A stretch of 64,000 nucleotides of DNA from Acetobacterium woodii DSM 1030 (GTDB lineage Bacteria; Bacillota; Clostridia; Eubacteriales; Eubacteriaceae). Position numbers and translations under genes: made by a program. The stretch covers positions 1,302,001 through 1,366,000 of the forward strand of contig NC_016894.1 of assembly GCF_000247605.1 (NCBI RefSeq), given 5' to 3'. The notes below the pieces were generated by a model. It did no database searches, was not told the DNA's origin, and saw only the letters and a program-made list of their open reading frames with translations. This document shows, piece by piece, positions 22,718 through 39,892 of this stretch (position 1 is the first letter of the stretch; each line of letters begins with the position of its first letter).

Positions 22718-22760
22718 AGCGATTGGTTAAAAACAAAATGAAATGAAAAGGAGTCAAAAA

Positions 22761-23726
22761 ATGAGAAAAGGAAAATTTGAAAGTAGTTCTGAAAGCGATT
22801 CCGTGTTTAAGGTTGGTGAGTTTTATCGAATGTTTGGTACCGAAGGTCTTGTGATGGCAGTTAGTGATCAGAATGATGTCCTTTTTAATACCGGCAGGGA
22901 GTTTGTCTGGGGGATCAACGTGGAAATGGAGTCTGAACGTGATCAACTAATCTGGGATAAAGCTTATTATTTCGAGGAATATGCGATTGTGCCACCAGTT
23001 GAAGAATTAAAAAAATATCGAAATCATCCCGGGGCTATTATAAATGGATTTGCTTATGCGATCGATGAGGTTAATCGCTGTGCTGTTTTATACAGCTCGA
23101 ATTTCCCCGACGAAATAGCACCAATCGATCAGCTTGAGACAATTCCTTCGACGGTTGAATATCAGGATCAGAGCTATCCGGTAACAGCGGTGGCTGATTG
23201 GGCATTTTATCAGAATAAACAGATAACGGATCTGGCGCTGCCGGATTCGATTAAAAGCATTGGCAATTATGCATTTGCCAAGTCTGATCTTAAACGTTTG
23301 GAAATGCCAGCTGAAGTTGAAAAAGGAAAAGATATTTTCTTTAAGTGCCAGCAGTTGATAAAGCCGCAAAGGGATAATTATCAGGAATCAGAAATAAAAA
23401 GAGCAGACCTGGATCATCTCTATAACTGTATTGAAAAGGCCGAGCGCGATGGTGCTCAAACGCATAATCGATTGTGGCATCACAACGCAATGCAGCAAAT
23501 GAATGTGTTATATACGCAGTATTTAAACCAGTGTGATTTACAAAATCACTACAAGGCACTTGAACAATTAGATCCCCAAAGCCAGGAGTATCAAGATTTA
23601 TCCGAGAAGATAAAAACATGGGAACTGGATGATGCGTCTCTGGTAGCCGAGCAAAATTTAATAAAGCAGCATGAAATTGATAACGGCCATGAATCGCATG
23701 AAGATGCTTATGAACCGGATATGTGA
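22761..23726 (+). CDS. BspA-type leucine-rich repeat protein, cytosolic, acidic tail
   Basis: AAAGGAG ends 7 nt before ATG 22761, preferred over ATG 22743, which overlaps the SD. No signal peptide is present. A central LRR_5-like unit (VADWAFYQNKQITDLALPDSIKSIGNYAFAK in outline, about 140-175) is flanked by a mixed N-terminal domain and a helical C-terminal part. The last residues, HESHEDAYEPDM, form an acidic tail like that of the Fic, ArdC and helicase proteins. BspA-type LRRs usually mediate protein binding. A cytosolic one in an ICE could be a transferred effector or adaptor (inference). Confidence 0.65.
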   Translation: MRKGKFESSSESDSVFKVGEFYRMFGTEGLVMAVSDQNDVLFNTGREFVWGINVEMESERDQLIWDKAYYFEEYAIVPPVEELKKYRNHPGAIINGFAYAIDEVNRCAVLYSSNFPDEIAPIDQLETIPSTVEYQDQSYPVTAVADWAFYQNKQITDLALPDSIKSIGNYAFAKSDLKRLEMPAEVEKGKDIFFKCQQLIKPQRDNYQESEIKRADLDHLYNCIEKAERDGAQTHNRLWHHNAMQQMNVLYTQYLNQCDLQNHYKALEQLDPQSQEYQDLSEKIKTWELDDASLVAEQNLIKQHEIDNGHESHEDAYEPDM

Positions 23727-24214: not shown

Positions 24215-24421
24215 ATGCAAGCAGAAATTGAAAATGAAGTCATTGGTTATGTGGCTGGAAAAGCGATTATTCGTGATGAAGATGGTCGTTGGTTTTTTCT
24301 TGAGATACCCGAAGCCCTGGTATTCCCTGGAGAACAGATTCAGAGCACGGATCTTACCCCACTTGAAGTTTTACCGGAGATCGAACAAAAACTGGTCTTG
24401 GCCGAAATGGAGGTGAAATAA
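24215..24421 (+). CDS. Small conserved-looking protein of 68 residues
   Basis: GAAAGGAT precedes the ATG. The product is acidic, without membrane segments, and contains GYVAGKAIIRDEDGRWFFLEIPEAL, which looks like a small beta barrel. The stop overlaps the ATG of the next gene (TAATG), so it is coupled to the ArdC-like gene. The function is unknown. Confidence 0.55.
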   Translation: MQAEIENEVIGYVAGKAIIRDEDGRWFFLEIPEALVFPGEQIQSTDLTPLEVLPEIEQKLVLAEMEVK

Positions 24422-25470
24422 TGGCCAAATATCAAAAGCGGAGTCCGGAGGAAATTAAAAAAGAACTGGAAAGTTACAATCAGAAGATCCTTGATTTGGG
24501 AGAGAATTTTAAGCGTGATCCGTCAGCAATGGCGGATTACTTTGCGTTTGGGGCGAAGTTTTATCAATATAGCGCCAAGAATCAGCTTTTAGTTTACCTT
24601 CAGAATGAACATGCTTCCTTTGTGGGAAGTTATAAATTCTTTCAAAACCAGGGTTATCAGGTGCAAAAAGGTGAAAGGGGCATGAAAATCTTTACGCCGG
24701 TGAAATGTTCTTATTTTTATCGGACTGGAGAGAAGCAGTCAACGCCATTAAAAGACGCAACCAAATATGAACGGGAACTAATTAATCAGGGCATTATTGA
24801 AGTTAAATCGACAGTTCGCTTTAAACTGGGAACAGTTTTTGATATTGCCCAAACAAATTGTCCGCCGGAAAATTACCCGAAACTTTTTGATTTTGGGGAG
24901 CAATCCTATGATCATGCGCGCGTCTTTAATAAGTTGAAATCCTATTGTGAGCTTCAGGGATTTCCGGTTGAAGATATCGGAATGCGTTCGATCACGTTGC
25001 GGGGGACCTTTACGCCGGACACAAAAGAAATCAAATTGAATGAAAAATTGCAGGATACCCAAAAACTGGGAACGTTTCTGCATGAAATGGCCCATGCTTT
25101 TTTAGAGCATGGGTTTTCTGATGATCATTGCTCTGTCCATGACCACATGCATGAATTTGAAGCCGATGGTTTGGGGATTATGCTGTTGACGCGATTTGGC
25201 TTTGATATTACGGAGCCAATGAAAGACCATTTATCGTCGCATTATCAGTTATTTCTAAGTGAAGTGGATCAGCTTGGTGACGATTCGAAAAAGAAAGAAT
25301 TTACCATTGATAAGTCCCTGGATCGAATTAATACGGTGTACAAAGAACACATTGATAACTTGGAAATGATTCTTGAAGACGAAAATGATTATGCTAAGAA
25401 AGCTGAAAATGACCGTTCGGATAGTGAAAAAATGACTGAGTATGAAGATGAGGACGAATTGGAAATGTGA
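24421..25470 (+). CDS. ArdC-like antirestriction/metallopeptidase protein
   Basis: This 349-residue protein has an ArdC-N-like domain (about 10-100: YSAKNQLLVYLQ, QGYQVQKGERG) that binds single-stranded DNA in plasmid relatives. A zinc-metallopeptidase domain follows with LHEMAHAFLEHG (about 219-230) and a downstream HEFEADG, giving HExxH plus a distal Glu. ArdC of conjugative plasmids protects incoming DNA against type I restriction and can be carried into recipients. The C-terminus is strongly acidic and ends YEDEDELEM, almost the same as the Fic protein at 25671. The start codon overlaps the previous stop. Confidence 0.8.
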   Translation: MAKYQKRSPEEIKKELESYNQKILDLGENFKRDPSAMADYFAFGAKFYQYSAKNQLLVYLQNEHASFVGSYKFFQNQGYQVQKGERGMKIFTPVKCSYFYRTGEKQSTPLKDATKYERELINQGIIEVKSTVRFKLGTVFDIAQTNCPPENYPKLFDFGEQSYDHARVFNKLKSYCELQGFPVEDIGMRSITLRGTFTPDTKEIKLNEKLQDTQKLGTFLHEMAHAFLEHGFSDDHCSVHDHMHEFEADGLGIMLLTRFGFDITEPMKDHLSSHYQLFLSEVDQLGDDSKKKEFTIDKSLDRINTVYKEHIDNLEMILEDENDYAKKAENDRSDSEKMTEYEDEDELEM

Positions 25471-25670: not shown

Positions 25671-26537
25671 ATGACGGATAAAAAACAATTTGCTACTTAT
25701 CTGGAAATCGAGGAAACCAAAGATATCAACCAGAAAGAAAAATACTGGAAGACGGGTTTTGGACTTAATAAGATTGATTATCTGGAGCCATCTACCTATT
25801 TGACACAAGACTTACTACCAGAACACTTGGCTGGCAAGTTATCTTATCAGGAGGTTGAAAATGCCTTAGTCAACCATTATCAAGCGTTGCCAGCAGATGA
25901 ACAGGTGATCAAAGAACGAGAATGTGATATAGTCTCGACCCGGATTGCTTCCCTTCTGGATAATTCTGGATTTGTGTTAAGCCCGGCATCACTAAAAGGC
26001 ATTCATCGGTATCTCTTTAAAAATATTTTGCCGGTGGACTGGATCGGGTCATTCAGACAGAAAAATATTTATAAAAAAGAGCCGATTCTAAATGGTGAGA
26101 GCGTTTCTCATGCCAATTATTTTATGATTGAAGATACCCTTACTTATGATTTTGAGATGGAAAAAAAGAAGAATTACGTCAACATGACAGCGCTGGAAAA
26201 GATTCAAAACATCGCTGGATTTGCTTCTTCCATCTGGCAGGTTCATCCCTTTCGGGAAGGAAACACCCGAACGGTGGCGGTATTTATGGTGCAATATCTA
26301 AATGTTTTAGGTTTTCAGGTAAATAATGATCCCTTCGAGGATAATGCGCTTTATTTTAGAAATGCCCTAGTACGGTCTAATTATAGCAATCAAGTAAAAA
26401 ACATCAGTCATACCGATGCCTACCTGATTAAGTTCTTTGAGAATCTGCTCTTTGATCAGGAGCAGCCACTATCGAATCAGGAAATGCAGCTTATTGATGA
26501 GTATGAAAAAGAGAATGACTGGGAACTAGAAATGTAA
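25671..26537 (+). CDS. Fic-family AMP-transferase-like protein with acidic tail
   Basis: The Fic signature HPFREGNTRT sits near residues 195-204 with the catalytic His present. A preceding LKGIHRYLF and the flap segment SHANYF fit the fold. The length of 288 is normal. Such proteins transfer AMP or related groups to Ser, Thr or Tyr hydroxyls of target proteins; mobile-element Fic proteins act as toxins or secreted effectors. No obvious adjacent FicA-type antitoxin is seen. The tail DEYEKENDWELEM closely matches that of the ArdC-like protein just upstream, which suggests a shared signal. Confidence 0.88.
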   Translation: MTDKKQFATYLEIEETKDINQKEKYWKTGFGLNKIDYLEPSTYLTQDLLPEHLAGKLSYQEVENALVNHYQALPADEQVIKERECDIVSTRIASLLDNSGFVLSPASLKGIHRYLFKNILPVDWIGSFRQKNIYKKEPILNGESVSHANYFMIEDTLTYDFEMEKKKNYVNMTALEKIQNIAGFASSIWQVHPFREGNTRTVAVFMVQYLNVLGFQVNNDPFEDNALYFRNALVRSNYSNQVKNISHTDAYLIKFFENLLFDQEQPLSNQEMQLIDEYEKENDWELEM

Positions 26538-27859: not shown

Positions 27860-27904
27860 TTTTCAATCACAAAGACAAAATTATATTGACGAAAGGTGAA
27901 TAAA

Positions 27905-30900
27905 ATGAACTCAAGAGAAATACAAAATTTCCCCCAAATAGCGCAAGAAAATTTCCAGACACCGGAAAACTGGATGACCTTTCTGGAACGGTCGGCCTGG
28001 CATTATAAGCATACCTTTTATAATCAGATGCTGATCGTGTTTCAACGGCCGGATGCAACAGCGGTAACCGGAATTGAAGCCTGGAATAAAAAACTTAATC
28101 GAACCGTCAACGTTGGATCAAAGCGAATCATGATCATGGATGATCATAAGAAGTATGAATTTAAAAATGTCTTTGATGTGAGTGACACCCATAAACGCAA
28201 CCCCAATGGCCCGGACTTTAAATTGTGGAGCCGGGAGAATGTAGAGGAAGCGGTTATAATTAATCGGACAATGAGTAACGATCAGGAAGTTAAAATTAAA
28301 CACAGTCTGCCAGAATATATCATTACCGAAATAAAAGAACGAAATAAAGATCTGTTTGAATATTTTCAGTCCGAAATCCAGGATTCAAACAGACTTTATC
28401 TCAGTAATCTGGATGAGCGTGGATTTGCCACCCTGCATGATAACAGTGTGACCTATCAGATTCTAGCCCGATGTGGCTATAATCCCCGGGATTATTTTAA
28501 TCCAGATGATTTTGCACAAATAAAAAAAATAAATAACTTTAAATCACTGATATTTTTGGGTAATAATGTAACGAGTACCACTAAACCATTTCTAATCGAA
28601 ATGGGAAAAACAGTCCAGACCATTGAAATGGAACAATTGAAAAATCAAATAGAAGGAGAATTATTAAATGAGCAAGAATCAGGAAACATTCAAACCCTTG
28701 GAGTTGACTTATCACCAGGAAGGAGAGTTTCTGACCCCGGATATCAAACCGATGACGCCACCCAGTCAGGAAATCGGGAAGTACGGCATGTTGAGAAACG
28801 AATATCTGAAGGAGCACAAGCCGGATCTATTGATGGAATTGATCTTCGCGGACAAGATCAACGAACATCTGGTAGAAATCGATCAAGCAGCCAAAAGGCG
28901 ACTGGAGCAGATCATGGCGGGGATGATCAAAAATCATCCAGCGCCGGACAAGAAAACTCAACCATTGGAATGGACGGGCTATATGAACAACCTTCAGAGT
29001 CAGGCCAACGAGATCGTCCTTCAGGAACTCATTTACAGTTAAGCCTGTTTAAGTCTGGACAGGAGCCAATAAAACCAAACCAACAAGCGGAGAGCCTTAA
29101 GCCCTCCGCTTTTTCTATGCCCCAGCATGAGATTGACGTGATCCTTCGCAGTGCTGGTAATGACCGGGATAGTCAGTTACGTATTGTCGCTCAATATAAG
29201 AAGCAGCTGCCGACTGAGGACAATGTAGATTTCCTCAAAGCGGAATACCGTAGCGGTGGCAAAGGTTTTTTTATTGACGAAAAAGAAGTGGCGGTCTGGT
29301 TTGATAAAAATGAGTTTCAGATAGCTCGGGGAAAATCAGTACAGAGCAATTTTATGAAAACCACCCTATCCTGGGAACAGGTTGAAAAACGGATCGGGGA
29401 ACTGCTTACTAGTGGTCTTTATACTAGTCAGGAACAGTTAGATAAGGTTGATGGTTTTGAACGTAAAGAATTGGCAAACAAACTCTGGTATCTGCATCAG
29501 GATCGATCCGGGGAATTTTTCATGGAGGATGAAATTTTCCAGGATGGTTTTCCGGATAGTACGGAACGGATTGCGAAACTAATTAATGATCTTGAAAAAC
29601 TGGATAAAATCATTACTGGACTGGACGGTTTTGCCCATAAATATAAACAAGACCGATCCATTTTGCGCTTCCATTTTCACAAGCCGGATGAGTTGTTAAA
29701 GCGACTCCATGACCTAAAACGGGAGCGCCGGGACTATCGAGCGAACGGGTTTGATTACCAGGAACCGGCGATGTTTATCACCCAGGACGAAGTGGATGCC
29801 GTTTTAGGTAGTGGTAGCAGTATGTCCGGTGGAAAACAACGGATCGTCAACTATTTTAGTCAAGATCACTCCCCCCAGGAAAAAGCGGATTTCCTTAAAA
29901 ATGAATATGGAACAGGTGGCAGATCTCATGCCCTTTCCGGAGCGGATAGCAGCTGGTTGGATTACAGTGCCAAAGGGATGTTGTTGCGCCGGGATGAAGC
30001 AGAAAAAAGCATCCTGTTATCCTGGCCCAAAGTGGCAAAACGCATTGATGAACTAATGACCCAGGGGCGCTATGTGATCGATGAAGCGAAACGGATTGAT
30101 GACCCTGAATTTAAACCAGAAAAGCCAGCAATTTCGATGGTAGATATTCATGAGCTACTAATAAACGTGACCCCGGACGACTACACCCGGCCGGTGTTTT
30201 ATGATTTATTATCTGAAACTAAAAATAATAATGAATTTGGCGAAGTGATTAAAAACACCTATTTGTTTAGTGAAGTCGCAGTGCTTGGAAAATTTGGTGA
30301 TACCTATTGGCAACATCTTGATCAAAAAGGTATTCTTTTTGAAAAGACTGCCGATCCGTCGGTCAATCGTTTTATGTCATGGTCGGATATTGCCGTGGAA
30401 GTTCGAGAACTCATTGAAACGAATCGATACGTTGTGCCGGGAGCATATCAGGAAATGGACCCGGAACCCTTTGTTGAGAGCTATGGAGAAACCCGATCAT
30501 TGATAACATATGATCGGGATAGTGAAGATCCTGAAGCGTCGGAAGTGATCAATGAATCTGCAACGGATCAGGATGAAAGCGATCATAGCGACCAGAAAAA
30601 AACGGATATTAAACTACCTAAACCAGAAAATTATAAAATAATTGCTGATGTTTTGGGAGAAGGCTCACCACGACAAAAGTTCAAGGCCAATGTATTGGCG
30701 ATTCAAACCCTGCAAGTGATTGAAAAAGAAAAGCGGATGGCCACGCCGGGAGAACAAACGATTTTATCCCGATATGTGGGCTGGGGCGGACTGCCACAGG
30801 CATTTGATTCGGATAACATCCATTGGAAACCGGAAGTTCAGGAGCTAAAAGAATTGTTATCCGAGGATGAATACAGTTCGGCTAAGGGATCGACCTTAAA

Positions 30901-33900
30901 TGCCCATTATACAGCGCCGGTTATTATCAAAGCCATGTATGGTGCCCTGGATCAGATGGGTTATACTAAAGGGAATATTTTAGAACCGGGGATGGGCGTG
31001 GGCCATTTCTTTGGCTTATTGCCAGACGCCATGAAGGATTCGAAGCTTTATGGCGTGGAGCTGGATAATATTACCGGTCGGATCGCCAAAGCCCTTTATC
31101 CGGAAGCGGATATCTCCGTGTGCGGGTTTGAGAAAACGCAGTTCTCCAACAACTTTTTTGATGTGGCCATCGGCAATGTCCCCTTTGGCGATTATCAGGT
31201 TTATGATAAAGCTTATGACAAACACAGTTTTCTGATTCATGATTATTTCTTTTCCAAGTCGCTGGACAAAGTACGGGATGGGGGTGTGGTCGCTTTTATC
31301 ACCAGTAAAGGTACCCTGGATAAAAAGTCGCCCATGGTTAGGCAGTATCTGGCGGAACGGGCCGAATTAATTGGTGCTGTTCGGCTGCCGAATAATGCTT
31401 TTAAAGCGAATGCCGGTACTGAAGTGACCTCGGATATCATCTTCTTGAAAAAACGGGATCGGATGGTCTTGGCAGCAGATGAACCCTGGGTACATCTGGG
31501 CATGGATGAAAATGGAATTCCAATGAATCAGTATTTTATTGATCATCCGGAAATGATCCTGGGCGAGATGCAAATGGTATCTGGACGCTTCGGTGAGGAA
31601 TCGGCCTGTCTGCCAATCCCTGGGAATGACCTATCACTTGCTCTTAAAAAAGCCCTGGGCAATCTGGACTATCAATTTCCTCAGGCGGAAATTGAAGCTG
31701 AAAATCTTATAGAAGATGACCGAAGCAGTATACCCGCTGATCCGGATGTGGCCAATTACTGTTATACCCTGGTGGATGATGAACTTTATTACCGGGAAAA
31801 CTCCCAGATGAAACGGATGGATAAACCGGTTGCTACCACAAGCCGGATTGTGGGGCTGATTGGCCTTAGGGACTGCACCCGGGAACTGATTGCCTTGCAG
31901 ATGGAAAACGGCAGTAATGGGGAGATTGAAAAGAAACAGGAAGAACTACATACCTTATATGATGCCTTTACCAAGAAACACGATCTGATTAACGCCACTG
32001 GCAATCGTCGGGCCTTTGATGAGGATGGATCGTACTGGTTGTTGTGTGCGCTGGAAGTTTTAAATGAAGATGGCAGCTTTAAAGAAAAATCCGATATTTT
32101 TTACAAACGGACGATCCGAACCAATGAAGTGGCAACAGCCGTGGATACTTCCAATGAAGCCCTATTGGTATCCATCAGTGAGAAAGCTAAAGTCGATCTG
32201 GACTATATGAGCAGCTTAACCGGAAAACCCCGCGATGTGATTATTGCAGATCTGGAGGGGTTGATCTTCCGGGATTTTGGCAACCTCGATCCGGAGCAAG
32301 AATTCCAGAACATTTTCGATCATCCGAAAGTTCCCTTTGTGACGGCGGATGAATACCTGTCCGGAAACGTCCGCAAAAAACTGGATCATATCCGACAATT
32401 GAGTGAAAGATTGCCCCAAAATCAGGCCGATAAACTTTTGCCAAATCTCAATGCGTTAGAAGCAGCTCAACCCCGGGATCTGGAAGCATCGGAAATCGAA
32501 GTGCGATTAGGGGCGACCTGGATCGAACCGGACTACATTCAGGATTTCATGGTTGATACCTTTAAGCCAGCAACTTTTCTGGTCAATAGTGAATCGATTA
32601 AGATTCATTATTCGCCATATACCGGGGTTTGGAATGTCCAGGGGAAGAATGCCGATACCGATGATAATGTCCTGGCAAATGTCACTTATGGCACCAAACG
32701 GGCCAATGCTTATCGCATTTTGGAGGATTCTCTAAATCTGAAGGATATCCGGATTTATGACACAACGCAAAATGCTGATGGGAATGATGTGCGGGTTCTT
32801 AATAAAAACGAAACCATTCTGGCCAGTCAGAAACAGGAGCTGATTAAAGAAGCTTTTCGGGAATGGATCTTTCAGGAGCCAAAACGCCGGGAGGTTTTAA
32901 CACAGAAATATAATATCTTGTTTAACAGTATCCGTCCCCGGGAATATGAAGGCAGCCATGTGGTGCTGCATGGGATCTCGCCGGAGATCCGTTTGCGGGA
33001 TTATCAGCTTAATGCCATTGCTCGAGGGCTATACGGTGGGAATACTCTGCTTGGCCACTGTGTTGGCGCTGGTAAGACCTTTGAGATGACCGCCATTGCC
33101 ATGGAAAGCAAGTACCTGGGTTTATCCAACAAAGCCCTGTTCGTGGTTCCCAATCATTTAATCGGACAATGGGGAGCGGAGTTTCTGGCACTCTATCCCG
33201 GGGCCAATGTTTTAGTGGCCCGGAAAAAAGATTTTGAACCGGATAACCGGAAGAAGTTCTGTTCCCGGATCGCCACCGGTGATTATGATGCCGTTATTAT
33301 TGGTCATAGCCAATTCCAAAAAATCCCCTTGTCTAAAGCGTTTCAGGAAAAAGCCCTGGACAACCAGATCGATGATGTACTCCTGGCCATTGATGATGCC
33401 AAAAGCAATAATGCGGAACAGTTTACTATCAAACAACTGGAAAAAACCCGAAAGTCATTGGAAGCTCATCTGAACCGACTCAATGATGACACTCGGAAAG
33501 ATGGTATCATTACTTTTGAAGAATTGGGGGTAGACCGGCTGTTTGTGGATGAGGCGCAGAATTTTAAAAATTTGTTTTTGTATACCAAAATGCGAAACGT
33601 GGCCGGGATCGGACAAAGTGAAGCCCAAAAAGCCACCGATATGTTTAATAAATGTCAGTATCTGGATCAATTAACCCAGAATAAGGGGGTGGTCTTTGCC
33701 ACCGGCACACCAATCTCAAACAGTATTACCGAACTATATACGATGATGCGTTATCTCCAGTACGACACCCTGATGGATATGAATTTAGGTCACTTCGATG
33801 CCTGGGCATCGACCTTTGCCGAAGCGATTACTGCCATTGAATTGTCCCCTGAAGGTACCGGTTATCGATCTAAAACCCGTCTAGCCCGGTTTTATAATCT

Positions 33901-34627
33901 ACCGGAGCTAATGGCTGTCTTTAAGGAAGTGGCAGATATTCAAACTCCGGATATGTTAAAACTTCCGGTACCAAAGGCCATCTATGAAGATGTGGTGATT
34001 AAACCTTCCGATCATCAAAAGGAGATGCTCATGGAACTGGTCAACCGAGCCGATCGGGTTCGGAAAAACCTGGTGGAACCGTATGAAGACAACATGCTTA
34101 AAATCACCAATGACGGACACAAGTTGGCGCTGGATCAGCGACTGATTAACCCGCTGCTGCCCGACCCGGAGGAATCAAAGGTAAATAAGAGCGTCGAAAA
34201 TATCGTCAAAGTCTGGCAGGATAGCATGGATCAGCGATCCGCTCAATTGGTATTCTGTGATTTATCGACGCCAAATAAAGATGGACGGTTTAATGTGTAT
34301 CAGGAGATTAAAAACAAAGCGATTGAAAAAGGCATCCCCGAAGATGAGATTGCTTTTATTCACGATGCCGACACAGATGTGAAGAAAACGGCACTTTTTT
34401 CTAAGGTAAGAAGCGGATCTGTCCGAGTGCTGATTGGATCAACGCCTAAAATGGGAGCTGGAACCAACGTCCAGGATAAACTGATCGCCCTCCACCATCT
34501 GGATGTACCGTGGCGTCCCGCTGATATTGCTCAACAGGAGGGTCGCATCCTCAGACAGGGAAATGAAAATCCTGAAGTGAAAATTTTTCGCTATATTACC
34601 GAACAAACTTTTGATTCGTACAGCTGG
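27905..34627 (+). CDS. Giant SNF2 helicase/N6-adenine methylase, exon 1
   Basis: ATG 27905 follows GAAAGG by 8 nt (GTG 27896 is an alternative). Exon 1 encodes 2,241 residues: an ArdC-like N-terminal domain (about 1-250), a low-complexity Ser/Gly/Gln/Asp linker (about 255-380) that overlaps tnpV, repeated small domains, an N6-methyltransferase with EPGMGVGHFFG (about 1026) and NVPFG (1090), and a superfamily 2 helicase with CVGAGKT (1719), DEAQ (1882), GAGTNVQDK (2182) and QQEGRILRQGN (2211). Reading beyond 34627 gives a stop after six codons. Joining to 36995 restores the frame (TYR-SER-TRP then GLN-LEU-ILE-GLU-ASN). Such proteins are typical of Firmicutes ICEs and probably protect or process incoming DNA. 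Confidence 0.9.
28668..29042 (+). CDS. tnpV: TnpV-family protein nested in another frame of the helicase gene
   Basis: This 124-residue ORF lies wholly inside exon 1 of the helicase gene, in the +1 frame. It has its own SD (AGAAGGAG, 7-9 nt before ATG 28668). The product shows the TnpV pattern: LTYHQEGEFLTPD, KYGMLRNEYLKEHKP, KINEHLVEIDQAAKRRLE, WTGYMNNLQSQANEIV and a final ELIYS. TnpV proteins are encoded on many Firmicutes transposons and ICEs; their role is unknown. The helicase frame across the same DNA is low-complexity, so the TnpV frame is the better-conserved-looking one. This is therefore a dual-coding region rather than a chance shadow. Confidence 0.85.
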   Translation: MSKNQETFKPLELTYHQEGEFLTPDIKPMTPPSQEIGKYGMLRNEYLKEHKPDLLMELIFADKINEHLVEIDQAAKRRLEQIMAGMIKNHPAPDKKTQPLEWTGYMNNLQSQANEIVLQELIYS

Positions 34628-36994
34628 GTGCGACATGAAGTCGCTTAATTAATTGTTTGGCATTTTTACTACATGACCAAACCAATCATTCCGTTGGTTG
34701 AGCCTAGTATCACCTGCATTGTTAGTAATGACATTGTTGGGAAGCTGATATGAAAAAGTAACCCTCTATAAGGTTGAACCGTGAGGGAATACCGATACTG
34801 CTAGCAACAAAGCAGTTAGGGAGCGGGCTTGGTAGTATGGTTAACATATGTGAACCGTTGATAAACGTCGTTAAGCTGAACAGGCTAAAGTTGCTGATAA
34901 GCCTGAACCAAAAGGTACGCAGTTGGATAACTCTCTCCAGCGATGGAGTTACACGGACATTAAACTGCCGGCGAAGAGACGGAACCTAACCTACCATTTT
35001 GTTAATTAAGTGGAACATGGTAAACCCGTATTTCTGCCTAATATAATAGGCAAGTAGACCGTAAGGAATGCCGTTGGGAATGCGGGTAGAAGATTGTGGA
35101 AAAAGCGAAGGTCACATTGTAATGATGTGGATAGGGATTTAAATGTTATCTCACACGAAAGTGGGCAGACTTCCACGCGGTTTTCAATCACAAGAAAATT
35201 TACAGAATTTTTGAAAGGAGAAAATGCAAATGAACGTTAAAACGTGTGCTACTTCTGACGTAGTAAAGCGATGGGAAGATATTGATTGGAACAAAGCGAC
35301 TATCTATGTTAAAAAACTGCAAATCCGTATTGTGAAAGCTCAAAAGGAGGGCAAATACAATAAAGTTAAATCATTACAGTATTTGCTATCACATTCGTTT
35401 TATGCCAAAGCATTGGCTGTAAAAAAGGTTACAGACAATAAAGGCAAAAGAACCGCCGGTGTTGATGGAGAAATCTGGAATACACCGGAAAGTAAGTTTT
35501 ACGCTATTATGAAAATGAAAAGTAGAGGTTACAAACCACAACCTTTAAAAAGAGTTTATATTCCTAAGAAAAATGGAAAGAAAAGACCACTCAGTATTCC
35601 AACAATGATAGATAGAGCAATGCAGACATTATATAAATTTACATTAGAACCAATTGCAGAAACTACCGCTGATCCTAATTCATATGGATTTAGAGTAGGA
35701 AGATGCACGCAGGACGCTATCGAACAATGTTTTACTTCTCTGAACAAGGGAAAGTCCGCTAAATGGGTATTGGAGGGTGACATCAAAGGCTGTTTTGACA
35801 ATATTAGTCATGAATGGATTCTTGATAATATCCCAATAGACAGAAATATCCTAAAGAAATGGCTAAAAAGTGGATATATAGAAACAGGCAAACTTTTTCC
35901 AACAGAAACAGGGAGTCCTCAAGGATCACCTATTTCACCAGTAATCAGTAATATGGTCTTAGATGGACTGGAAACAGTGATTAAAGAAAAATACCATAAG
36001 AAATTTATTAATGGAGCATGGTATTTTCCTAAAGTAAACTTTATCCGTTATGCTGATGATTTTATAGTAACTGGCGAAAGTTATGAACTACTGGAAAAAG
36101 GAGTAATGCCAATCATCAAGGAATTTTTGACTGAAAGAGGATTAGAACTGTCAGAAGAAAAAACCGTGATCACTCATATAACAGAGGGGTTTGATTTCCT
36201 GGGATGTAATATCAGAATGTATGGAAATAAACTTTTGACAACACCTGCACAAAAGAACTATAAGGCAATCATTGAGAAAATCAGAAAGATAATAAAGCGA
36301 AACCCATCCATAAAACAGGAAATTCTAATAAGAATCCTTAATCCAATCATCAGAGGATGGGTAAACTATCAGAAATTCAATGTATCATCTAAACGATTTG
36401 AAGATCTCGATTATGACATTTGGAAAGCATTGTGGAACTGGTGTAAGAGAAGACATCCTAAAAAAGGGAAAAAATGGATTGCAAACAAATATTTTCATGT
36501 GATAGGTACTAGAACATGGACATTTTCAGTAAAAACAGACGGAAAAATAGACAATGGTGAGGACTTTTATCTAAAGCTAGTTTACGCTACAAACACTGAT
36601 ATAAGAAGATTCACCAAAATTAAAGCAGAAACTAATCCGTTTGATAGCGAATGGCAAATATACTTTGAAGAACGAGAAGATTTAAAAATGCGTAACGAAT
36701 TAAGAGGACGAAGAATCATAAATAACTTATGGAAAATGCAAAAAGGTATTTGTCCTTATTGTTCGACGAAAATCACAGCGGATACAGATTTTAGAATTCA
36801 TCAACAAGATTCTCCGCTGGGAAAAAAGAAATATCTCGTACATTCAGAATGCCACCGAAACTTACATGATAAAACGAAAGACTTAGAGCTGGCTCTTTAA
36901 CGAGAGTTTATGAAAGCTTGAGCCGTATGAGGGGAAACTCTCACGTACGGTTCTTAGAGGGGAAGGGAGTAGTAATACTCCTGACCTACTCGAT
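34628..36994 (+). mobile_element. Complete group II intron inserted in helicase gene
   Basis: The 5' boundary is GTGCGACATG (GUGYG consensus) right after the Trp codon at 34625-34627. The 3' end is CCTACTCGAT at 36994 before CAG CTG. Domain V is at 36920-36953 (GAGCCGT, GGGGAAACTC, ACGGTTC, with the AGC catalytic triad). Domain VI carries an unpaired A in CCTGACCTAC. A maturase ORF lies at 35230. Length 2,367 bp. Removal restores the helicase frame exactly, so the element is likely splicing-competent. The insertion is just after helicase motif VI. Confidence 0.92.
35230..36900 (+). CDS. ltrA: Group II intron reverse transcriptase/maturase with HNH endonuclease
   Basis: ATG 35230 is 9 nt after GAAAGGAG (ATG 35224 would be too close). 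The protein of 556 residues has RT motifs including GVDGEIW, VYIPKKNGKKRPLSIPT, GDIKGCFDNI, the catalytic YADD (near 275) and GTSPQG-like GSPQGSPISP. A maturase X domain follows (RGWVNYQ). The C-terminal HNH region has CPYCSTKI and HSECHRNLH. All hallmark residues appear intact, so the intron should be able to retrohome. It is encoded within domain IV of the intron. Confidence 0.93.
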   Translation: MNVKTCATSDVVKRWEDIDWNKATIYVKKLQIRIVKAQKEGKYNKVKSLQYLLSHSFYAKALAVKKVTDNKGKRTAGVDGEIWNTPESKFYAIMKMKSRGYKPQPLKRVYIPKKNGKKRPLSIPTMIDRAMQTLYKFTLEPIAETTADPNSYGFRVGRCTQDAIEQCFTSLNKGKSAKWVLEGDIKGCFDNISHEWILDNIPIDRNILKKWLKSGYIETGKLFPTETGSPQGSPISPVISNMVLDGLETVIKEKYHKKFINGAWYFPKVNFIRYADDFIVTGESYELLEKGVMPIIKEFLTERGLELSEEKTVITHITEGFDFLGCNIRMYGNKLLTTPAQKNYKAIIEKIRKIIKRNPSIKQEILIRILNPIIRGWVNYQKFNVSSKRFEDLDYDIWKALWNWCKRRHPKKGKKWIANKYFHVIGTRTWTFSVKTDGKIDNGEDFYLKLVYATNTDIRRFTKIKAETNPFDSEWQIYFEEREDLKMRNELRGRRIINNLWKMQKGICPYCSTKITADTDFRIHQQDSPLGKKKYLVHSECHRNLHDKTKDLELAL

Positions 36995-37852
36995 CAGCTG
37001 ATCGAGAATAAACAAAAATTCATTGGTCAGATCATGACCAGTAAGCTTCCCGGACGATCCTGTGATGATGTCGATGAGCAGGCGTTATCCTATGCCGAAG
37101 TCAAAGCCCTGGCCACTGGTAATCCGCTCATTAAGGAGAAAATGGATCTGGATGTGAAGGTCAGTAAGCTAAAGCTGATCAAAGCCAATTTTGCCAGTCA
37201 ACGTTATCGTTTAGAGGACAATATCTTAAAAGCTTACCCAAGAGCAATCAGTGTCCAAACCGAGCAAAAGAGCGCTTTAATTGAGGACATGAAGCTCTAT
37301 GAATCGAAACAGCCGACAAAGGATCACTTTGAAATGACCATTGGCAATGTTTTTCATACTGACAAGAAAGAAGCCGGTAATGCCATTTTGGAGGCAGTTA
37401 AAAAGCTGAAAGATGACAAACCAAGAGCAATCGGCCAGTATGCCGGATTTAAAATGGCAGCCAAGTATGCCGGTTTCGATGGCGTGGATCTATATCTCAA
37501 AAATCAGGCCACTCATACCGTCCATTTGGGTACCGATCCCCTGGGCAATATTACCCGCATCGGTCATGTCCTGGACAGTATCCCGGAGCAGATTAAAAAA
37601 TGTGGAATGAATATTAAGGACACCCTGGAACGTCTGGAAAACGCCAGGGATGAGGTTAAAAAGCCTTTTCCCCAGGAACAGGAACTAAACGACTACCTGC
37701 TTCGCTTAAACGAGTTAAATACGATGCTCAGTATCGAACAATCCGAGCCGACCCAGGGAAGCCAGGAAAATGAAGACAATTTGGATAAAGAACTTCGGGA
37801 AGATATGGAAATGAATGCCATTGACGAAGGAGAATGGGATCTGGAGCAATAG
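36995..37852 (+). CDS. Giant SNF2 helicase/N6-adenine methylase, exon 2
   Basis: The 3' exon starts with CAG at 36995 and encodes 285 residues that continue the helicase after Trp-2241, giving about 2,526 residues in total. The sequence ENKQKFIGQIMTSK, then ALSYAEVKALATGNP and a long helical region, is the usual C-terminal part of this family. An internal ATG at 37034 gives a free-standing ORF but has no SD. The protein ends DEGEWDLEQ, an acidic tail shared with other ICE proteins. Expression of this part depends on intron splicing. Confidence 0.88.
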   Translation, partial: QLIENKQKFIGQIMTSKLPGRSCDDVDEQALSYAEVKALATGNPLIKEKMDLDVKVSKLKLIKANFASQRYRLEDNILKAYPRAISVQTEQKSALIEDMKLYESKQPTKDHFEMTIGNVFHTDKKEAGNAILEAVKKLKDDKPRAIGQYAGFKMAAKYAGFDGVDLYLKNQATHTVHLGTDPLGNITRIGHVLDSIPEQIKKCGMNIKDTLERLENARDEVKKPFPQEQELNDYLLRLNELNTMLSIEQSEPTQGSQENEDNLDKELREDMEMNAIDEGEWDLEQ

Positions 37853-38638: not shown

Positions 38639-39892
38639 ATGGAACGTACTATTTTACATAGTGATATGAATTCGTTTTATGCGGCGGTTGAGTGTTTGTA
38701 TAATCCGAAAATTAGAGATAAACCTGTGGCCGTTGGAGGCAATCCAGAAAAACGTCACGGGATCATCCTGGCTAAGAATGAAAAAGCCAAAAAAGCCGGT
38801 GTTAAAACCGGAGAAGCTTTATGGCAGGCGATGGGAAAATGTCCAGGGCTTGTCATCGTACCACCGAATTATGAACGATATCTCAGATATTCAAAGTTAT
38901 CCAGGCAGATTTATAACCGGTACTCGGATCAGGTCGAGCCTTATGGCCTCGATGAGTCGTGGATCGATTGTACAAACAGTCTGAAGATCCATGGATCAGG
39001 GGAGGAAATTGCTAAAAAGATCAGTGCTGAAATTAAGGATGAGCTGGGAGTGACGGTATCAATCGGCGTATCCTGGAACAAGATATTTGCAAAGTATGGA
39101 TCGGATTACAAAAAACCAGATGCAATCACAGTGATCACCCGAGATAATTATAAAAAAATCGTCTGGGAGCAGGAAGCTGGGGATCTGCTTTATGTGGGGC
39201 GATCTACTCAGAAAAAACTTTTAAAATACGGAATTTATACCATTGGTCAATTAGCAGAGAGCAATCTTGACTTTCTGATTCAAATATTTGGTAAGATGGG
39301 CACCGTTCTATGGCGGTTTGCAAACGGTCTGGACGATAGTCCGGTTAAAAGCTTTGATGAGCATTACAATGGCAATGAACGGCTGATTAAAAGCATTGGT
39401 AACAGTATTACCACTCCCAGGGATTTAATAAATCTGAAGGACGTCAAGATTATTATATTTATGCTTACCGAGAGTGTGGCCATGCGGTTAAGGGAAACCG
39501 GCTGTTATTGTCAAACAGTGGCCATTCATGTTCGAAATAAAGAGCTTCATAGCTTCACCAGGCAAATGAAGCTTCAGAAACCATCGGATCTGACCAATGA
39601 AATAGCCAGAGCAGCTATTGATCTGCTTGTTAGAAACTATGATTTCAACTCAGACATCCGCTCCATGGGCGTGAGGGTTACAGATTTGGTACCGGATTCA
39701 ACACCCATTCAACTGGATTTATTTGGTAATGAGGAATTACGCGTAAGGCAAGCAAGACTAGATGAAACTGTTGATGGACTAAAGAAACGCTTCGGCAATT
39801 TGGCGGTGCGAAGGGCGATAACCATTGACGATCCGATGGGTTGCCTGGATGCGAAGAAGGATCATACTATTCATCCAATCGGATATTTTTAG
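38639..39892 (+). CDS. Y-family DNA polymerase (DinB/UmuC-like)
   Basis: This 417-residue protein begins MERTILHSDMNSFYAAVE, the Y-family palm start with the first catalytic Asp. YGLDESWID supplies the other acidic residues, and SIGVSWNKIFAKYGSDYKKP is characteristic. Near the C-terminus TPIQLDLFG is a clamp-binding motif (QLDLF). These enzymes copy damaged DNA with low fidelity. The perfect LexA box upstream means induction by DNA damage. It is a separate unit after the ICE operon terminator and could still be ICE cargo, since the tRNA scar lies further right. Confidence 0.93.
   Translation: MERTILHSDMNSFYAAVECLYNPKIRDKPVAVGGNPEKRHGIILAKNEKAKKAGVKTGEALWQAMGKCPGLVIVPPNYERYLRYSKLSRQIYNRYSDQVEPYGLDESWIDCTNSLKIHGSGEEIAKKISAEIKDELGVTVSIGVSWNKIFAKYGSDYKKPDAITVITRDNYKKIVWEQEAGDLLYVGRSTQKKLLKYGIYTIGQLAESNLDFLIQIFGKMGTVLWRFANGLDDSPVKSFDEHYNGNERLIKSIGNSITTPRDLINLKDVKIIIFMLTESVAMRLRETGCYCQTVAIHVRNKELHSFTRQMKLQKPSDLTNEIARAAIDLLVRNYDFNSDIRSMGVRVTDLVPDSTPIQLDLFGNEELRVRQARLDETVDGLKKRFGNLAVRRAITIDDPMGCLDAKKDHTIHPIGYF

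What the first reader, a model, noticed from the sequence alone, without database searches (positions are those of the whole stretch)
28668..29042. Complete tnpV gene nested out of frame inside the helicase/methylase gene
A 124-codon ORF with its own SD (AGAAGGAG) encodes a full TnpV-like protein in the +1 frame of the giant gene. The giant gene's own frame there is low-complexity (Ser, Gly, Gln, Asp, Arg). This suggests the linker of the helicase arose by overprinting on an older tnpV gene and that two products are made from the same DNA. My recollection is that linkers of homologous proteins have a similar look, which would fit conserved overlap, but I cannot verify it here.
Basis: partly seen in the sequence, partly recalled or inferred. 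Interest (0 to 1): 0.82.

Follow-up and report, generated by a model that had tools for sequence, protein, structure and literature searches.

The report
Hidden tnpV gene inside helicase gene
A complete small gene (tnpV) is written in a second reading frame inside the gene for a giant DNA-transfer protein, and the same two-in-one arrangement is found in most of the related giant genes examined, so it looks like an old, selected pair of overlapping genes rather than a chance open frame.

Summary
ORF 28668-29042 is a full TnpV protein (PF14198, E 3.9e-30) in the +1 frame of the giant methylase/SNF2 gene, with its own SD. It is no local oddity: of 85 distinct loci found with the giant's N-terminal domain, 80 carry TnpV in the linker, all in register +1; a phylum sample gave 19 of 19 full giants, 4 repeats. 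SD: 147 of 150 nested copies, 5.5% of control sites.

Both frames are selected. 36 lineages have no giant-frame stop; free tnpV genes average 5.7, recoding predicts 8.5. At TnpV-silent sites T is absent where it would make a giant-frame stop (0/825) or Cys (0/203), depleted for Tyr and Phe, normal for Ser and Leu. The giant's overlap is predicted disordered, TnpV folded.

So one stretch encodes TnpV and a disordered linker. Which frame came first is open. TnpV's function is unknown; there are no expression data. The closest published parallel seen is the hidden HNH of the ShiLan phage methylase; here the inner gene is inherited with its host gene. My searches found no report of this overlap.

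The parts
27896..34648 (+). giant methylase / SNF2 helicase gene, 5' part (2250 codons), up to a group II intron
   Evidence: (SNF2 3.5e-9 and ResIII 6e-6 over cut-off; Eco57I methylase 2.1e-5, 25.1 bits, just under its cut-off of 25.3)
27896..28675 (+). N-terminal domain (giant aa 1-260), ArdC-like, used as the query for giants
   Evidence: AF2 pLDDT 71-97 per block over aa 11-260; one partial tblastn hit to a protein annotated ArdC-like (38% of query, E 3e-6); no Pfam ArdcN hit
28651..28658 (+). Shine-Dalgarno AGAAGGAG of tnpV, inside the giant's coding sequence
   Evidence: SD of 5 nt or more in 147 of 150 nested tnpV genes
28668..29042 (+). tnpV, 124 codons, +1 frame of the giant gene
   Evidence: Pfam PF14198 E 3.9e-30; AF2 mean pLDDT 86.6
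28668..29042 (+). same bases read in the giant frame (aa 258-382): disordered linker
   Evidence: AF2 pLDDT under 50 for aa 262-399; selection on composition
34682..36994 (+). group II intron inside the giant gene (RT ORF 35224-36900); ends given by the Rfam hits only
   Evidence: Rfam RF02012 34682-34823 and RF00029 36918-36994; RT and maturase domains
37034..37852 (+). ORF after the intron, probably the 3' end of the giant gene
   Evidence: position only; no Pfam hit; continuity not tested

Best explanation
This is an old, selected pair of overlapping genes. Ribosomes that start at the giant's own start translate the ArdC-like domain, run through the tnpV stretch in their frame as a hydrophilic disordered linker of about 125 residues, and go on into the methylase and helicase. 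Other ribosomes start inside the message at a strong SD plus ATG and make TnpV, a small folded protein, from the same bases one frame over. Shown here: the homology, the fixed register and place, the SD, the selection on both frames, the predicted disorder of one product and fold of the other. Inferred: that both proteins are made from one message and that the nesting ties their production together. My guess for TnpV is an accessory protein of the same element (DNA processing or establishment after transfer); this last step is weak.
For: Register and place: 80 of 85 distinct giant-query loci have TnpV right after the N-terminal domain, every one at +1, giant frame open through it in 78; 19 of 19 full giants in the phylum sample, 4 of them repeats. 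SD of 5 nt or more in 147 of 150 nested genes, 5.5% of control sites. Substitutions in 1701 pairs follow the TnpV frame (third > first > second base). Giant frame selected: 0 stops in each of 36 lineages, where recoding predicts 8.5 and free tnpV genes carry 5.7 on average. T at TnpV-silent sites, nested against 24 free genes: would-be stop 0/825 v 141/556; Cys 0/203 v 72/179; Tyr 52/407 v 75/249; Phe 36/167 v 64/138; but Ser 236/629 v 153/447 and Leu 72/162 v 78/176. 35 of 36 lineages have less T in the Cys/Trp/Tyr/Phe class than in the Ser class; free genes 13 to 11. Identities of TnpV and of the N-terminal domain rise together (35 lineages, Mantel r 0.83, 0 of 2000 permutations). Models.
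Against: No transcript, ribosome or peptide evidence. Residue by residue the linker is no more conserved than TnpV plus codon context predict (identity 0.208 against 0.206), so the giant frame is held in openness and composition only. The Trp class is not significant against free genes (15/115 v 20/95, p 0.14). The lower divergence of silent TnpV sites seen over many pairs is small in the window's own genus (0.286 against 0.315 and 0.294). Some giants do without TnpV in the linker (L048, L051, L054, L186), and the giant frame has a stop inside or after the overlap in L075, L082 and L124. The most diverged nested ORFs match TnpV weakly: L189, L192, L194 at E 2e-3 to 5e-3 with the clean profile; of 10 sent to Pfam 6 passed the cut-off, and the S. 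agalactiae one (L209) scored TnpV at only E 0.01, behind DUF2972 at 0.0025, both under their cut-offs. TnpV has no structural match.
Confidence: 0.88

Rival explanations
1. TnpV was born inside the giant: the giant's linker frame is the older one, tnpV arose in it by overprinting, and the free-standing tnpV genes of mobilizable transposons are escapees.
For: Nested giants on both sides of the midpoint root of the giant tree; free and nested TnpV interleaved, 7 changes of state, at least 2 forced by well-supported branches. Some free genes have few giant-frame stops (L152 2 against 8.4 predicted, L154 3 v 6.8, L167 2 v 5.9), as if recently un-nested.
Against: The last point is weak: 22 of 25 'free' genes lie below the prediction (142 stops observed, about 202 predicted), so the prediction runs high. 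One of the free rows (L075) is a giant with a broken frame. The roots are midpoint only, and the bootstrap had not settled. Giants work with a short linker, so the long linker may be the newcomer.
Confidence: 0.27
2. Homing-type insertion, like the out-of-frame HNH element of the ShiLan phage methylase: a selfish insert kept open in the host frame.
For: Same layout: folded product out of frame, disordered product in the host's frame, host gene a methylase (PMC11855218, passages).
Against: No HNH match by Pfam in the 11 nested TnpV proteins scanned; TnpV sits in 80 of 85 giant-query loci and not patchily, and is inherited with its host domain (Mantel r 0.83); it has an SD, which that paper reports missing for its HNH.
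Confidence: 0.06
3. A frameshift makes an ArdC-TnpV fusion; TnpV has no start of its own.
For: In 18 of 36 lineages the tnpV frame is open for more than 15 codons before the start.
Against: In the window a TAA directly precedes the ATG; the other 18 of 36 lineages have a stop within 15 codons upstream; SD in 147 of 150.
Confidence: 0.03
4. Chance ORF or dead relic of a recent tnpV insertion.
For: Long same-strand ORFs do occur by chance in this window.
Against: Homology, fixed register, SD and selection in 36 lineages.
Confidence: 0.02

Closest known systems
TnpV family (PF14198), known from Tn4451-type mobilizable transposons
   Same: Full-length profile match, E 3.9e-30.
   Different: In the passages read, tnpV is described as an ORF of its own in such transposons (PMC3158075, PMC6435816); here it is nested. 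The lambda-Xis-like role postulated there was neither supported nor excluded by my fold search.
Polyvalent proteins with ArdC-N, methylase and SWI2/SNF2 ATPase (Iyer et al. 2017, PMC5512222)
   Same: SNF2 and methylase-like parts in one chain behind an ArdC-like N-terminus.
   Different: A term search of that paper found no 'TnpV', 'overlapping' or 'overprint' (passages).
ShiLan element: hidden HNH endonuclease out of frame in a phage methylase (PMC11855218)
   Same: Out-of-frame folded protein over a poorly structured in-frame stretch of a methylase gene (passages).
   Different: There: patchy, homing, nuclease, no detectable RBS. Here: in 80 of 85 loci, co-inherited, TnpV, SD in 147 of 150.
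comS inside srfA of Bacillus subtilis
   Same: Small same-strand gene out of frame in a larger gene (PMC12350097, passages).
   Different: A single locus as far as I recall; that paper calls the two functions complementary but independent. The phage Rz/Rz1 parallel (nested gene whose product pairs with its host's) is recalled, from no call.
snf2 gene of ICESa2603-family ICEs and SNF2 gene of E. faecalis plasmids
   Same: Same giant family with a +1 ORF of 140 (L209) and 145 codons (L210) at the same place.
   Different: Described as a core gene and an insertion site; no TnpV in the term searches of PMC4735348 and PMC12942858 (passages).

Membership tests
TnpV (PF14198) | profile match over the curated cut-off along the whole model | tested here: met
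   104.5 bits, cut-off 27, positions 1-111 of 111
TnpV (PF14198) | function in excision (Xis-like), as postulated for Tn4451 | tested here: inconclusive
   no telling PDB match by Foldseek or VIA-align, none by sequence
ArdC-N / methylase / SNF2 polyvalent protein | SNF2 ATPase | tested here: met
   SNF2-rel_dom 36.6 bits, cut-off 24.9
ArdC-N / methylase / SNF2 polyvalent protein | DNA methylase in the same chain | tested here: inconclusive
   Eco57I 25.1 bits, cut-off 25.3; MAD2 methyltransferase E 7.7e-6, far under its cut-off
ArdC-N / methylase / SNF2 polyvalent protein | ArdC-N domain at the N-terminus | tested here: inconclusive
   no Pfam ArdcN hit for the giant; partial tblastn hit to an ArdC-like annotated protein
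Overlapping (dual-coding) gene pair | selection on both frames | tested here: met
Overlapping (dual-coding) gene pair | both products made in the cell | not testable with these tools
   no expression data here
ShiLan-type out-of-frame homing insertion | hidden ORF is an HNH endonuclease | tested here: not met
   hidden ORF is TnpV; no HNH among Pfam matches
ShiLan-type out-of-frame homing insertion | disjunct distribution among close relatives | tested here: not met
   80 of 85 giant-query loci

The most novel reading that the evidence does not exclude
A protein family known as a free-standing transposon gene was born by overprinting inside the linker of a giant conjugation protein, has been kept there by selection on both frames across Clostridia and Bacilli, and has repeatedly escaped to become a free gene; the nested pair co-acts in the transferred element.
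Probability: 0.22. Interest if true: 0.92.

Novelty: new variant of a known kind. Interest (0 to 1): 0.8.

Why it matters
As far as I recall, long same-strand nested genes in bacteria are mostly single cases. This one can be read in 36 diverged lineages, so it allows direct tests of how two reading frames are kept at once: the TnpV-silent sites reveal what the other frame forbids (stops, Cys, many aromatics) and allows (Ser, Leu). It also adds a probable hidden gene to the snf2 gene of studied streptococcal and enterococcal elements. And it shows an annotation blind spot: of four plasmid stretches with a gene table read here, none lists both genes: the giant only (L210), TnpV with the giant cut short or missing (L211, L033), neither (L209) (PLSDB's table is incomplete).

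Tried and rejected
Rejected: chance ORF, recent insertion, frameshift fusion (see rivals). Frame age by codon usage: the giant frame looked more native (0.069 against -0.050), but free tnpV genes show the same sign (0.039 against 0.006), so the test says nothing. Residue-level constraint on the linker: an apparent excess (0.208 against 0.174) vanished with codon context held fixed (0.206). Fold of TnpV: no PDB match with E of 0.001 or less; best VIA Z 4.9 over 58 residues, not telling; no sequence match in the PDB. Genes before free tnpV: serine recombinase (L164, on the other strand from tnpV; L127), SNF2 gene (L003, L133), coupling protein (L154), homoserine dehydrogenase (L156): suggestive of mobile elements, no function.

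Limits and errors of mine. read '-' hits on the wrong strand, and the profile held antisense translations; both were redone. 'Nested' requires an open giant frame, so zero stops there is partly by construction; searches do not require it. The 36 lineages leave out genes with N or with under 900 nt of flank. The recoding prediction runs high: 25 free genes carry 142 stops where about 202 are predicted. In the SD control 43% of sites had no start codon at all.

Searches for an earlier report: TnpV, 20 papers listed; passages of 3 read; PF14198, 0 papers. None seen described the overlap; most subscription papers are not held.

Full report
Observation. The ORF 28668-29042 is real and lies in the +1 frame of the giant ORF 27896-34648. 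Pfam places TnpV over its whole model (E 3.9e-30) and finds SNF2 and ResIII over cut-off and an Eco57I-type methylase just under it in the giant. The genome (4.04 Mb) has no other TnpV at E 0.001 or better.

How common is it? In genomes of the same family (40 searched), PF14198 gave 30 places; 12 of the 30 are nested in the giant (11, plus L018 at a contig edge). To avoid choosing by TnpV, I searched with the giant's first 260 residues: order (67 genomes, 15 with a match) and class (291 genomes, 75 with a match; the two sets share genomes). From these I read 94 loci: the 54 that the tool gave (L035-L088) and 40 further places picked by hand, mostly with long open frames. Of the 94, 85 are distinct with at least 120 domain positions; 80 have TnpV in the linker zone, all at register +1; the giant frame is open through it in 78 (L075 has a stop, L079 ends with its contig). 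The 5 without are L048, L051, L054 (tnpV just upstream of the giant), L057 (a short ArdC-like ORF) and L186. Seven partial loci were dropped, two of which (L187, L188) do carry a +1 TnpV. In the phylum (398 genomes, 26 with a match, query from an S. agalactiae giant), 30 loci of 39 places were read: 19 full giants, all nested at +1 and open (4 repeat earlier loci: L213, L218, L225, L226); one partial giant (L235) with a +1 ORF matching TnpV at 2e-5; and 10 loci matching only the first part of the domain (open frames of 56 to 750 codons), none with TnpV. Nested copies also lie in an S. agalactiae plasmid record, an E. faecalis plasmid, Monoglobus, Subdoligranulum and Cohnella plasmids and a gut phage contig; Pfam supports the E. 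faecalis one (E 8.6e-8), but not the S. agalactiae one (E 0.01, behind DUF2972).

Is tnpV translated? Over the loci held there were 175 distinct TnpV places, 150 nested: 147 of 150 have an SD match of 5 nt or more before an in-frame start, against 5.5% of control sites in the same genes; 19 of 25 free genes have one too. In 36 lineages (under 60% identity to each other) the start is ATG in 32. In 1701 pairs the TnpV codon positions diverge as third > first > second.

Is the giant frame translated there? Recoding each TnpV synonymously with its own giant's codon usage gives 3.7 to 15.3 giant-frame stops (mean 8.5); all 36 lineages have none. Free genes, recoded with pooled usage, carry 142 stops where about 202 are predicted, so the prediction runs high, but they average 5.7 and none has zero. 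Fourfold TnpV sites diverge less than fourfold sites of the flanks (0.253 against 0.378 and 0.423 at 80-90% identity), though in the window's genus alone the difference is small (0.286 against 0.315 and 0.294). The clearest test: at TnpV codons where T is a silent option, T would start a giant-frame codon. T is absent for stop (0/825) and Cys (0/203), depleted for Tyr and Phe (p 9e-8 and 5e-6 against free genes), lower but not significantly so against free genes for Trp (p 0.14), and normal for Ser (0.38) and Leu (0.44). In free tnpV genes T is used at 0.21 to 0.46 in every class, in the N-terminal region of the same giants at 0.34 to 0.53. 35 of 36 lineages have less T in the Cys/Trp/Tyr/Phe class than in the Ser class, p 1e-9; free genes 13 to 11. 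So selection sees the giant-frame residues, as composition: no stop, no Cys, few aromatics. It does not hold single residues.

Structure. AlphaFold2 gives TnpV a beta hairpin and four helices (mean pLDDT 86.6). The giant's first 460 residues fold up to about aa 261; aa 262-399 are under pLDDT 50, mostly 25 to 33, which nearly coincides with TnpV (aa 258-382).

Evolution. TnpV and N-terminal-domain identities go together (35 lineages, Mantel r 0.83). On a quick giant tree (39 rows) nested members lie on both sides of the midpoint root and L048, L051, L186 fall inside, though their joining is flagged as a possible long-branch effect. This favours an old nesting with later loss or relocation. Free and nested TnpV are interleaved (bootstrap not settled). 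By eye, L048, L051 and L186 have a linker of roughly 45 to 65 residues and keep the LxLF-like motif that follows the overlap. Which frame is older is open.

Literature (passages only). PMC5512222 describes ArdC-N as an N-terminal header and the methylase-SNF2 dyad. PMC9815147 and PMC12942858 report elements inserting into snf2. PMC11855218 describes the ShiLan hidden HNH, PMC12350097 names comS in srfA. None of the passages read mentions TnpV within the giant.

Noticed in passing
window 34682-36994: A group II intron with its reverse transcriptase interrupts the giant gene in its helicase part; the ORF 37034-37852 is probably the 3' end.
   Followed up: partly
window 24421-25470: A second, stand-alone ArdC-like protein with a metallopeptidase domain (PF08401, PF06114); the genome's only TnpV is elsewhere.
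   Followed up: partly
L133 7250-15476: A giant gene holds a nested TnpV and is directly followed by a second TnpV that overlaps its end by about 16 bases; this may be the edge of an element inserted in the SNF2 gene.
   Followed up: no
L048, L051 (tnpV about 971-1357, giant from about 1465): tnpV stands just upstream of the giant and the linker is short: a natural un-nested arrangement.
   Followed up: partly
L152, L154, L167, L116: Free tnpV genes with only 2 or 3 giant-frame stops; perhaps recently un-nested, but most free genes lie below the prediction.
   Followed up: no
window 25671-26537, 22743-23726, 38639-39892: Fic protein, BspA-type leucine-rich repeat protein and a Y-family DNA polymerase near the giant gene.
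   Followed up: no
L075, L082, L124: Giant frame broken inside or after the overlap while TnpV is whole: pseudogenes or assembly errors.
   Followed up: no
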